Shown one piece after another: positions 3,805-30,707 of a DNA stretch of 64,000 nt. Under the pieces are notes generated by a model. The model was not told the origin of the DNA, did not search any database, and worked only from the letters and a program-made list of their open reading frames with translations. Origin of the DNA: Terriglobia bacterium (lineage in GTDB: Bacteria > Acidobacteriota > Terriglobia > Acidiferrales > UBA7541); the NCBI GenBank assembly GCA_020073705.1, contig JAIQES010000021.1, forward strand, positions 36,219 through 100,218. Reading direction: 5' to 3'. A program made the translations under genes and the position numbers. The first letter of the stretch is position 1; each line of letters opens with the position of its first letter.

Positions 3805-3858
3805 CTAATCAAAACGCGGGCGGTTGCCGCATCTTTCCAGCAAACTGACGATAGAAAA

Positions 3859-4605
3859 CTACGAGCCCGGTCCGGTCTTTTGAAAAAGATGGTACGGATT
3901 CGTGGCAACCAGGTGATACCGGCCCGAGGTCATGATTTCGGGCATCAACTTATGAAGGCTGAATTCGCCCAGAGTGGAATCATCGAAAAAGATAAATCCG
4001 CCGGTTTCGAGATACGCATCGGAATTCAGAAAGTCCCTCTTCGCGTATTCATATGTGTGGTTACCATCGATGTAGCAAAAGCTGAATTGGCCGCCGAGAC
4101 GGAAATTCCTGCCCAAAATATCCGCACAGTCTTTTTGGTCCTTCCATGCGGCGAAAAATACATCCGCCGTCATCTCAAAAGTAAATGGCAAATCGTCGCC
4201 GCTGAACATTTGAATGTTGCGAATGTATGAATCTCTTACGAAAGCTCTATAATCGGAAAAGAGAACCGGCGAATTCGGAATCTTGGAGCGCCCATCTACG
4301 TTTTCAAATTCCCACTTGTCGCACGTAATGAGCGGATTTTTCGCTCCGTGCTTGCGCTTGAGGTGTGTGATCACATTCGTGGAGAGCCCGCAAAAGGACC
4401 CGATTTCAAGGATCGGCGCTGCACTGGGAAGATGGCCGATAGCGTAATCGATGGAGTGGAGATTCCCCCTCTCCAACATCCCGGCGTTCGCGTAACCCAG
4501 CCAGGAAATGTATTCATCGTTGATGAGACGGATCGTTTCCGGCGGGTCAATGATTCGCGCCGCCTTTCTCAGCGCCCGTCCCACCAATTTCTGAACAGAA
4601 CTCAT
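3859..4605 (-). CDS. Class I SAM-dependent methyltransferase-like protein
   Basis: ILEIGSFCGLSTNVITHLKRKHG...FCYIDGNHTYEYAKRDF...GGFIFFDDS; start at MSSVQKL avoids overlap with the upstream gene. Confidence 0.7.
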   Translation of the reverse strand: MSSVQKLVGRALRKAARIIDPPETIRLINDEYISWLGYANAGMLERGNLHSIDYAIGHLPSAAPILEIGSFCGLSTNVITHLKRKHGAKNPLITCDKWEFENVDGRSKIPNSPVLFSDYRAFVRDSYIRNIQMFSGDDLPFTFEMTADVFFAAWKDQKDCADILGRNFRLGGQFSFCYIDGNHTYEYAKRDFLNSDAYLETGGFIFFDDSTLGEFSLHKLMPEIMTSGRYHLVATNPYHLFQKTGPGS

Positions 4606-6826: not shown

Positions 6827-7563
6827 CACCCGTTGTGCTGTCGCCATTCGCGAAGTTGAGCGACTGCGCGCAGTTGATCAATGGAAAAGCCATCGCCAGC
6901 CAGGACTACCCACCCGCGTTTTAAGCCGACTTCCTCAGACGACGGCAACGCCGGAAAGAAAGGAATGAACCCGAGGTGGGCGATAGGGTTTAAGTACTCG
7001 AGGGACAGCTTTTTCCCCCCTCCGTAGTCATCAAATTGGTATCCAGAATCATCTGGCACCTGAAAATCGTCTATCATCACTACTGGTCGGGTCCAATGAC
7101 GGAAGATTAAGTCAACCTCTTCCCGGAGCGGCAGGTCATCGTGCCAATGCGCATCTAGATAGAAGAATACTCTATCCTTAGGCACGGTCGAATCTTGGAT
7201 CAGCCGACGAAGGAACTGCCTGCTATCCCCGAGACAAAAATGCACGTTGGACCGGGCCCAGAGTCGCAACTGGGCGTAGCCCAAGTATCGCGGGTTCACT
7301 TCGCTGGAATAGACGGGACAGCCGGCATCTGCAAAGAAAAGGGTGCTTTCGCCTCGGTATGTGCCGGTTTCGACGACTGCGTTGAAAGAGCAAAGCCGTT
7401 TCAACTCCTCAAATGCGTTCAAGCGCGCCCGAGAACCGTTCAGTGGTCCGCCGAACCCCGTAGTCGGCTGGCGATGGAAAATACAATCTACGGCACCGAG
7501 CCAACAATCGACTCGTTTCTCACCGAAAGCCGCTGAGAGTAACTGTCGAATGAAGTGAATCAT
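6826..7563 (-). CDS. Class I SAM-dependent methyltransferase-like protein
   Basis: AVVETGTYRGESTLFFADAG...LGDSRQFL...FFYLDAHWHDDLPLREEVDLI...VVMIDDFQVPDD; start chosen at MIHFIRQL. Confidence 0.6.
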   Translation of the reverse strand: MIHFIRQLLSAAFGEKRVDCWLGAVDCIFHRQPTTGFGGPLNGSRARLNAFEELKRLCSFNAVVETGTYRGESTLFFADAGCPVYSSEVNPRYLGYAQLRLWARSNVHFCLGDSRQFLRRLIQDSTVPKDRVFFYLDAHWHDDLPLREEVDLIFRHWTRPVVMIDDFQVPDDSGYQFDDYGGGKKLSLEYLNPIAHLGFIPFFPALPSSEEVGLKRGWVVLAGDGFSIDQLRAVAQLREWRQHNG

Positions 7564-7736
7564 CAGATTATCTAGAATTCGTATGGCTGGGCGGCACACC
7601 CTTTCATATAATGTTGTTGCCTCACCCCACAACCGACATCCCGCGCGGTCTCCAGTCCCAGCTGTGTTCTCCATGTGGCGAAAGCTTCCCACATGAGCGT
7701 GATTCTTGCTTCGTCCAGTGCCCGGCAATCCGCATG

Positions 7737-8996
7737 TCAAAAACTCGATTTTGCGGCAATGGGGGCCTCCTCTGCATTGCGAATGGTGAAATCACAAGGC
7801 ACGTTCAAAACTCCGTTCCATTCGTCCCTCGGGTGCTGGAAAACTTTGGTCGCAATGTTCATTTCCGGCAGACAATCCCACAATTCGAGAAGTTCCTTGT
7901 CTTCCCAGAGGCTTACCTGCCAAGCGTACGCGCCCGGGCGTAGTGGAAGTGTCGGGAACGTATACGTGAAGGAATGTATGCCGGGCTCTAGGCGAACGTC
8001 GTCCTTCGCCCAAGCCCACATTAGTTGGCGATCCATGTTGAACAAGGCGACACCGTGATGGCCCCGCTGGACCGGTTGATTGACTTGCACGATAAATCGG
8101 ATCTTAACCGGGCCGAACGACGTCAACATATGCGCCGATTCACTTCGTGGCTGCAGAATCTCCCAATTTAGGAAGTGCACTTTCTCGCCGCGATCTGCGT
8201 CATTGGACGCAGTTCCTGATGTCATGGCGGCCTCGTAGGCGCCGACAATTTCAGCAGTCGGACCGGCCTGCCGGATCGTGCCGCCGTCCATCCAGATCAC
8301 CTTTTCGCACAGGCGGCGAATCTGATTCATCTGATGGCTAACGAAAACGATCGTGCGGCCCGCATGAGCAACTTCGCCCATCTTCCCAAGACACTTCTTT
8401 TGAAACGCCAGGTCGCCTACGGCAAGGACTTCGTCCACCAGCAAAATCTGCGGCTCGAAGTGCGCGGCGACCGCGAACGCCAGCCGCATCTGCATTCCCG
8501 TGCTGTAGTGCTTCAGCGGCGTGTCAATGAAGTCGGCGACCTCGGCAAACGCGACAATGTCGTCGAACTTGCGTTCGATCTCCTTCTTGCCCATGCCCAG
8601 AATCGCGCCGTTCAGATACGTATTCTCGCGGCCCGTCAGTTCCGGGTGAAAACCCGTGCCGACTTCCAGCAGGCTGCCAACGCGGCCTCGGATTTCCGCG
8701 CTGCCTTCGGTGGGCTGTGTGACGCGGGAAAGAATCTTCAGCAGGGTGGTTTTCCCGGCGCCGTTGCGTCCAATCAAGCCGAGCACTTCGCCCTCGTGCA
8801 TATCAAAGGAAACGTTGCGAAGCGCCCAGATGTGGCGCGGCCCGGCGTCAGAGCCGTTGGCGCCATTCGAACCAAACCAGCGCACCGGCGCCGTCATCGC
8901 GTTCGTGAGGCGGTCGCGCATGGTGAGGTATCGCGCACGCCCGCCAATCCGATAGCGTTTGCCCAGCGACTCAACATGGATGGCAATATGACTCAT
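7737..8996 (-). CDS. ABC transporter ATP-binding protein, polysaccharide export (Wzt-like, with C-terminal domain)
   Basis: Walker A GRNGAGKTTLL, Walker B ILLVDEVLAVGD, H-loop FVSHQ; C-terminal extension HMLTSFGPVKIRFIVQVNQ typical of Wzt. Confidence 0.9.
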   Translation of the reverse strand: MSHIAIHVESLGKRYRIGGRARYLTMRDRLTNAMTAPVRWFGSNGANGSDAGPRHIWALRNVSFDMHEGEVLGLIGRNGAGKTTLLKILSRVTQPTEGSAEIRGRVGSLLEVGTGFHPELTGRENTYLNGAILGMGKKEIERKFDDIVAFAEVADFIDTPLKHYSTGMQMRLAFAVAAHFEPQILLVDEVLAVGDLAFQKKCLGKMGEVAHAGRTIVFVSHQMNQIRRLCEKVIWMDGGTIRQAGPTAEIVGAYEAAMTSGTASNDADRGEKVHFLNWEILQPRSESAHMLTSFGPVKIRFIVQVNQPVQRGHHGVALFNMDRQLMWAWAKDDVRLEPGIHSFTYTFPTLPLRPGAYAWQVSLWEDKELLELWDCLPEMNIATKVFQHPRDEWNGVLNVPCDFTIRNAEEAPIAAKSSF

Positions 8997-28951: not shown

Positions 28952-29650
28952 TTATCTCTCAACTCGGGCCCGATAGGCGATAGGATCGGTTATACCGGCA
29001 TCGGCAAATGCACTCAAGCGCAACCGGCAACTATCGCACGCGCCACAGGCCTCGTCTTCAAACTGGTAGCAGGACCAGGTTCGATCGAGTGGCGCGCCCA
29101 ATTCTACGCCGCGCTGCACGATCTCTCGCTTACGCATAGCGATCACCGGCGTGACAATTTCAATTCGCGTTTCCGGACGCGTTCCCTCACGCACCAATTG
29201 CTGGAATACGCGGTAATACTCCGGCCGGCAGTCCGGATAGCCCGAACTGTCTTCCGCAACGGCGCCGATAAACACAGCGCTGGCGCCGATGACCTCTGCC
29301 CAGCTTACCGCAACCGCAAGAAAATGGGCGTTACGGAATGGGACGTATGTGGACGGAATTTCGTTGCAGGAAATTGGCGTCCCTGCTTCTCCCTCCGGGA
29401 CCGCGATTCGCATGTCGGTCAGCGCCGAACCGCCGATTTTCACGAAGTGATCCAGTTGTACGGCCAGCCGCTCGCTCACGGAATAAAAATCCGCGATCTC
29501 ATCGAAGGCCCGCCGCTCGCGGCGCTCGGTCCTTTGACCGTAACTGGCGTGCAACAGGGCAATTTCATGCGTTTGGCGCGCCATCGCTGCCGTAACGCAG
29601 GAGTCCATCCCGCCGCTCACCAAGATCACCGCCTTGGGTTGCCTGCTCAT
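28952..29650 (-). CDS. queC: 7-cyano-7-deazaguanine synthase
   Basis: AVILVSGGMDSCVTAAMA PP-loop; C-terminal Zn motif SCYQFEDEACGACDSCRLR. Confidence 0.92.
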   Translation of the reverse strand: MSRQPKAVILVSGGMDSCVTAAMARQTHEIALLHASYGQRTERRERRAFDEIADFYSVSERLAVQLDHFVKIGGSALTDMRIAVPEGEAGTPISCNEIPSTYVPFRNAHFLAVAVSWAEVIGASAVFIGAVAEDSSGYPDCRPEYYRVFQQLVREGTRPETRIEIVTPVIAMRKREIVQRGVELGAPLDRTWSCYQFEDEACGACDSCRLRLSAFADAGITDPIAYRARVER

Positions 29651-29705: not shown

Positions 29706-30707
29706 CTATACGCCGCGCGTGGCCGGATGCCAGATGAATTTGTGCAACTGCACGCCGAGCCGCACGGGCAGCCCGTCAGCCAGAATCCATTCCGCGAGTT
29801 CTTGTGCTTTCATCCCGGGCCATGAACCTTTCGGGTCCGCGTGCACTGGAGAAAATACCACTTGATGGACGCGTTGGGCCAGCCCATGTTGGAGCGTGAA
29901 ATCGCGCGCAAATTCATAATCGCGGCGGCCGGAAACCACGAATTTAATTTCATCCTTGCGATCAAGCGCATCTAGATTTTCCACACGGAATGTATCCGGC
30001 TCGCCTGAATCGGGACACTTTACATCCACAATTTTGATCACTCCTCGCGGCAAATTCGAGATGGTACGCTCGCCGCTGGTTTCGATGAGCACGGTATAAC
30101 CACTGTCCAATAGCCTTTGCGCCAAAGGAATCACATCGGGCTGCAGCAGCGGCTCGCCGCCGGTCAATTCAACCAGAGAGATCGCTCGCGTGGCTCCCAT
30201 TTTCCCGGATGCTCCATCTGCCACGGCGGCGGAGAATTCCTCGACGCGCGCGAGGATTTCCTCGACGCTCATCTTCGTGCCGCCATGAAACGCATACGCC
30301 GTGTCGCACCACGTGCACCGCAGATTGCATCCCGTGAGGCGCACGAATATGCACGGCAGGCCTGCGCGCGTGCTCTCCCCCTGGATGATCCGCGCGCCCT
30401 CGGGCATTGCATTCAGTTGCCGCGTGGTTTCGTCATAAAAATACTTCGCCAGATTCTCCGCGGAAGGATTGATGACATCAAACGGCGCCTGGTCATTCAA
30501 GAATTTGTGATCCATGCCGGAGATCACATCGCGCATCACTCGCTTCAAGTGCGCAAAATCATATAGCAGGCCGATGGCATCGAGCTGAAGTCCCTCCAGC
30601 GTGACCTGCACTTTGTAATTGTGGCCGTGCGGGTTCTCACACTTCCCCTTGTATCCGCGCAGCGCGTGCCCTGCGGAAAAACTCTCGTCGACGCTGACTT
30701 GAAACAT
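29706..30707 (-). CDS. In-frame fusion of 6-carboxytetrahydropterin synthase (QueD) and 7-carboxy-7-deazaguanine synthase (QueE)
   Basis: N-term MFQVSVDESFSAGHALRGYKGKCENPHGHNYKVQV; C-term IQGESTRAGLPCIFVRLTGCNLRCTWCDTAYAF with the QueE CxxxxxxxxCxxC-type radical SAM region. Confidence 0.88.
   Translation of the reverse strand: MFQVSVDESFSAGHALRGYKGKCENPHGHNYKVQVTLEGLQLDAIGLLYDFAHLKRVMRDVISGMDHKFLNDQAPFDVINPSAENLAKYFYDETTRQLNAMPEGARIIQGESTRAGLPCIFVRLTGCNLRCTWCDTAYAFHGGTKMSVEEILARVEEFSAAVADGASGKMGATRAISLVELTGGEPLLQPDVIPLAQRLLDSGYTVLIETSGERTISNLPRGVIKIVDVKCPDSGEPDTFRVENLDALDRKDEIKFVVSGRRDYEFARDFTLQHGLAQRVHQVVFSPVHADPKGSWPGMKAQELAEWILADGLPVRLGVQLHKFIWHPATRGV

What the first reader, a model, noticed from the sequence alone, without database searches (positions are those of the whole stretch)
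29706..30707. In-frame QueD-QueE fusion lacking the QueD C-terminus and QueE N-terminus
The sequence passes directly from QueD (TTRQLNAMPEGARI) into QueE (IQGESTRAGLPCIFVRLTGCNLRCTWCDTAYAF). The usual QueD C-terminal strand with its conserved Glu (typically ...V.V.ET...) and the QueE N-terminal segment (typically M..I.EIF.S) are absent. Zn ligands (H, H-G-H), the catalytic-type Cys and the radical SAM cysteines remain. This may be an unusual bifunctional enzyme, a deletion-born fusion with lost QueD activity, or an assembly collapse.
Basis: partly seen in the sequence, partly recalled or inferred. Interest (0 to 1): 0.72.

Follow-up and report, generated by a model that had tools for sequence, protein, structure and literature searches.

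The report
Deletion-fused QueD–QueE gene, one genome
In one environmental acidobacterial genome, two neighbouring genes for making the tRNA base queuosine are joined by an in-frame deletion of roughly 0.4 kb that removes an essential-looking end of the first enzyme; every relative examined keeps two whole genes, so this is a one-off gene wreck (or a draft-assembly error) rather than a new kind of enzyme.

Summary
On the minus strand, 30707→29706 is one 333-codon ORF: QueD residues 1-107 joined directly to QueE residues 108-333. In relatives queD and queE are neighbours but separate. Of more than 50 loci carrying both, and 95 genomes of the order, none other is fused. Against same-genus genomes the window lacks about 360-463 bp: the last ~17 QueD codons (two β-strands and the invariant Glu of "WET", E. 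coli E110), a small conserved membrane-protein-like ORF, and the first ~9 QueE codons. The join shows at most ~1-3 nt of microhomology and no repeat. Other window genes look intact. Kept QueD has all 35 invariant residues and ordinary dN/dS; kept QueE has its substrate residues and Fe-S cysteines. folE, queC, queF, tgt, queA and queG are present, plus two full-length PTPS paralogues beside folE.

Best reading: a recent, lineage-private deletion leaving a probably active QueE behind a probably inactive QueD stub, with CPH4 made by a paralogue or not at all. A local MAG assembly error is a serious rival that only reads can exclude; another MAG of the genus is damaged at this same locus. A working bifunctional enzyme is unlikely. 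Interest is low.

The parts
29706..30707 (-). fused queD-queE ORF, 333 aa
30387..30707 (-). QueD part, residues 1-107 of the fusion; zinc ligands H14, H27, H29, Cys C23, D66/H67 kept; last ~17 residues including the invariant Glu missing
30386..30387 (-). junction: about 360-463 bp present in same-genus relatives are absent here (QueD tail, small ~62-aa ORF, QueE start)
29706..30386 (-). QueE part, residues 108-333; Q109, E111, R123, C127, C131, C134, T136 kept; first ~9 residues missing
28952..29650 (-). queC, full length, downstream neighbour

Best explanation
An in-frame deletion of about 0.36-0.46 kb, private to this lineage and probably recent, fused queD to queE. It removed the QueD C-terminal strands with the substrate-anchoring Glu, a small membrane-protein-like gene, and the QueE N-terminal strand. 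The hybrid is most likely translated from the queD start. Its QueE half probably keeps, at least in part, the radical-SAM conversion of CPH4 to CDG; its QueD half is probably inactive or badly impaired. CPH4 would then have to come from one of the two full-length PTPS paralogues beside folE, or queuosine synthesis is being lost. Shown: the fusion in the assembly, the two-gene layout in relatives, what is missing, and that the rest of the pathway is present. Inferred: that the deletion exists in living cells, that QueD activity is lost and QueE activity kept, and that a paralogue compensates.
For: More than 50 loci with both genes keep them separate and full length; in 95 genomes of the order only the window matches through the join. 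The join has no N's and no repeat: the longest word shared by the 60-nt flanks is 6 nt and not at the join. The window genes that have orthologs in the fetched relatives' stretches show no comparable truncation. The lost QueD tail carries E114 and A120, invariant in 28 QueDs, and W113, T115, Y122; it forms two strands in the model of intact QueD that the fusion model lacks. All QueE residues named for substrate, cluster and Mg binding in E. coli (PMC11142719) are kept, and an N-terminally tagged E. coli QueE still makes queuosine. No other queE or canonical queD is in the genome, while tgt, queA, queF, queG, folE and queC are. The small ORF is absent from the whole genome.
Against: One draft genome only, with no reads to check. 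The QueD half shows no decay: all 35 invariant columns kept and dN/dS 0.07-0.13, which fits a recent deletion but also an assembly error or continued selection on QueD. That a PTPS paralogue can make CPH4 is untested; the paralogues score below the QueD cut-off and their motifs look PTPS-II-like. The loss of the QueE N-terminal strand, conserved in all relatives, could also impair QueE.
Confidence: 0.58

Rival explanations
1. Local assembly or gap-closing error in the MAG: the cell has intact queD, small ORF and queE, and the draft joined two gene fragments. The in-frame join would be a 1-in-3 accident.
For: Unique among all genomes examined. No sign of decay in either half. The genome is a draft of 78 contigs. 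Another same-genus draft, G001, is damaged at the same locus: queE and the start of queC are missing and an NN gap lies inside queC. Spacers after queD in G003-G005 contain repeat-like sequence, seen by eye.
Against: No repeat at the join for an assembler to collapse on; no N's in the window; both ends lie inside coding sequence and not in the repeat-like spacer; no comparable truncation among the other window genes with orthologs; the join is in frame.
Confidence: 0.32
2. A working bifunctional QueD-QueE enzyme in which the shortened QueD still makes CPH4 and hands it to the attached QueE.
For: In-frame join; QueD zinc ligands, Cys and Asp/His kept and all 35 invariant columns of the retained part conserved; dN/dS of the QueD half ordinary; the two enzymes act in consecutive steps.
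Against: Invariant E114 and two C-terminal strands missing; the joining segment is predicted disordered (residues 103-110 below pLDDT 50); not found in 95 genomes of the order, and no join-spanning hit in 396 of the phylum; the tight phage and plasmid matches that were opened are separate genes.
Confidence: 0.07

Closest known systems
QueD, 6-carboxytetrahydropterin synthase (PTPS-I of COG0720; TIGR03367, PF01242)
   Same: Residues 1-107: CxxxHGH motif, zinc His, Asp-His pair, 76-81% identity to same-genus QueD
   Different: Lacks the last ~17 residues with the invariant Glu and two strands; covalently followed by QueE
[quoted passage not shown] TIGR04349-like)
   Same: Residues 108-333: QGE, FVR, CX3CX2C, TGGEP and C-terminal part, 77-79% identity to same-genus QueE
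   Different: Lacks the first ~9 residues (M.ISEIFRS), replaced by a QueD fragment
Acidobacterial queD - small ORF - queE - queC gene order in relatives
   Same: Same order and neighbours: DinG-type helicase gene upstream, queC downstream
   Different: Relatives keep the genes separate; the window lost the middle ORF and both inner gene ends

Membership tests
QueD (PTPS-I) | CxxxHGH motif, third zinc His, Asp-His pair | tested here: met
   Alignment with E. coli and genus QueD: H14, C23, H27, H29, D66, H67
QueD (PTPS-I) | C-terminal strand with invariant Glu (E. coli E110) | tested here: not met
   Invariant in 28 relatives, absent in the fusion
QueD (PTPS-I) | CPH4 synthase activity | not testable with these tools
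   Needs complementation or assay
QueE | CX3CX2C cluster motif and substrate residues Q13, E15, R27 (E. coli numbering) | tested here: met
   Alignment with roles from PMC11142719
QueE | N-terminal strand M..I.EIF.S | tested here: not met
   Conserved in all relatives, absent here
QueE | CDG synthase activity | not testable with these tools
   Needs complementation or assay
A conserved QueD-QueE fusion family | Occurrence in more than one genome | tested here: not met
   None in 95 genomes of the order; no join-spanning match at E<=1e-60 among 396 of the phylum; none among fetched genome-contig loci

The most novel reading that the evidence does not exclude
A functional QueD-QueE chimera in which a QueD lacking its C-terminal strands and anchoring Glu still makes CPH4 (the missing parts being supplied by the QueE segment or by neighbouring subunits) and passes it to the fused QueE.
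Probability: 0.06. Interest if true: 0.5.

Novelty: new variant of a known kind. Interest (0 to 1): 0.17.

Why it matters
If the deletion is real, it is a natural test of how much of QueD and QueE can be lost, and of whether PTPS paralogues beside folE can supply CPH4 for queuosine. It is also a caution: a draft genome can suggest a bifunctional enzyme that no relative supports. It adds no new pathway or enzyme family.

Tried and rejected
(1) Conserved bifunctional family: no second case. Large open-frame values (460, 488) in the genome search output first suggested fusions in G002 and G003; the DNA shows separate ORFs with stops between them. (2) Phage or plasmid fusions: the tightest matches that were opened are adjacent separate genes. 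(3) Assembly collapse on a repeat at the join: no repeat. (4) General truncation of genes in this contig: not seen; the shorter DinG-like product differs only near its N-terminus, since residues 65-702 align with G002 without a net length difference. (5) Decay of the QueD half: not seen. (6) Rfam RNA near the locus: none at gathering threshold. (7) First alignment for structure prediction (A1) misplaced the QueD rows and was discarded; A2 uses loci where queD and queE share a frame, with stops read as residues, so inter-gene filler falls in insert columns. (9) Literature: title and abstract listings gave no report of a QueD-QueE fusion; searches for QueD and PTPS active-site papers returned none in the library.

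Full report
What is there. On the minus strand of the window, 30707 to 29706 is one open reading frame of 333 codons. It begins as QueD (MFQVSVDESFSAGHALRGYKGKCENPHGHNY...) and passes at residue 107/108 into QueE (IQGESTRAGLPCIFVRLTGCNLRCTWCDTAYAF...). Pfam matches PTPS only to profile position 99 of 121, then Radical_SAM. NCBIfam scores the first part as QueD above its cut-off and enters the QueE models at about position 10.

What relatives have. The window lies in G000, a 3.79-Mb draft in 78 contigs (97% complete, 0.9% contaminated). Judged by the records its protein hits, it is an acidobacterium near Candidatus Acidiferrum. In same-genus genomes G002-G005 queD and queE are adjacent but separate, and no fetched relative locus carrying both has them fused (more than 50 loci). 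In 95 genomes of the order the window is the only one whose match runs through the join. Among 396 genomes drawn across the phylum no other match at E <= 1e-60 does; that search lists only strong matches, so a distant fusion could be missed. The phage and plasmid matches that I opened are adjacent separate genes.

What was lost. Compared with G002-G005, about 360-463 bp are missing at window 30387|30386. Three things are gone: the QueD tail (ASVTIWETDTTSATYWP in G003); a small ORF of about 62 aa (MNRSFLIII...), 57-82% identical to the G005 copy within the genus and 41-53% in four genomes of other genera, with no match anywhere in G000; and the QueE start (M.ISEIFRS). The join is in frame. The left side ends GGCGCGCGGATC and the right side begins ATCCAGGGG. 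At most about 1-3 nt could have been shared, and the 6-nt word shared by the 60-nt flanks is not at the join.

Consequences for QueD. In 28 aligned QueDs, Glu114 and Ala120 are invariant and W113, T115 and Y122 nearly so. In the alignment with E. coli QueD this Glu is the one in KET, which I count as E110. From general knowledge of PTPS and QueD structures this Glu anchors the pterin. A model of intact G003 QueD (mean pLDDT 89) has strands at 106-113 and 119-122 around it. The model of the fusion (mean pLDDT 74, shallow alignment) has no strand between helix 83-100 and residue 119, and residues 103-110 are below 50. Its QueD half still matches E. coli QueD structures (TM-score about 0.7 by target length) and its QueE half matches QueE structures. 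The QueD half should therefore be incomplete and is probably inactive; this is inference.

Consequences for QueE. In E. coli QueE, Q13, E15 and R27 take part in substrate binding, C31, C35 and C38 bind the cluster and T40 binds magnesium. An N-terminally YFP-tagged QueE is functional in queuosine synthesis (PMC11142719). The alignment maps these residues to Q109, E111, R123, C127, C131, C134 and T136, all kept. The deletion stops just before the first of them. QueE activity is plausible, not shown.

The rest of the pathway. queC lies next door and is full length. tgt, queA, queF and queG are present. folE lies on contig C78 directly after two full-length PTPS genes. Their motifs are CNNPHGHGH and CNNPYGHGH, closer to the PTPS-II (biopterin) pattern as I know it, and they score below the QueD cut-off. 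A similar tandem is present in G001-G004, where it coexists with queD. PTPS subfamilies serve different pathways (PMC5041015), so whether one of these can supply CPH4 is open. At least one highly complete relative appears to lack both queD and queE (G040, 99% complete, best match 2.7e-10), so loss of the pathway seems tolerated in this family.

Age and selection. Pairwise dN/dS of the QueD half against same-genus genomes is 0.07-0.13 and of the QueE half 0.11-0.14, within the range seen among the relatives themselves (synonymous sites are near saturation, so the values are rough). All 35 QueD columns and 85 of 86 QueE columns that are invariant among 17 relatives are kept. The QueD half has not decayed. 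That fits a recent deletion, continued selection on the hybrid, or an assembly error, and does not separate them.

Real or artefact. For a real deletion: no N's, no repeat to collapse on, no comparable truncation in the other window genes that have orthologs, and an in-frame join (1 in 3 by chance). For an artefact: a single draft genome, a unique event, and no decay. In addition, another same-genus draft, G001, is damaged at the same locus, with queE and the start of queC missing and an NN gap inside queC. I give 0.58 to a real deletion with impaired QueD, 0.32 to an assembly error and 0.07 to a working bifunctional enzyme. These are judgements, not computed values.

Verdict. The striking reading, a new bifunctional enzyme, is not supported. 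This is most likely an ordinary, lineage-private gene fusion by deletion, or a local draft error, in a known pathway.

Noticed in passing
L154 (G001:C490), about 3858-4160: In this same-genus draft queE and the first part of queC are missing and an NN gap lies inside queC, so a second genome is damaged at the same locus; probably an assembly problem.
   Followed up: partly
L006 about 1326-1505, L007 about 1294-1473 (between queD and queE): A conserved small ORF (about 62 aa, MNRSFLIII..., two hydrophobic stretches) sits between queD and queE in the genus and in some other genera; best Pfam match is a sub-threshold RseC_MucC (E 0.0016). It is absent from the window's genome.
   Followed up: partly
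L151 (G000:C78:10001-27000) 7174-8641: Two full-length PTPS genes in tandem directly before folE; motifs CNNPHGHGH and CNNPYGHGH. Role unknown; a similar tandem is present in relatives that keep queD.
   Followed up: partly
L006, L007, L034, spacer after queD: The spacer after queD differs between same-genus species and contains different repeat-like or palindromic sequence in each, seen by eye; not tested for copy number.
   Followed up: no
L010 (G005:C17) and L005 (G005:C287): G005 holds two near-identical copies of the queD region on short contigs, probably two strains binned together.
   Followed up: no
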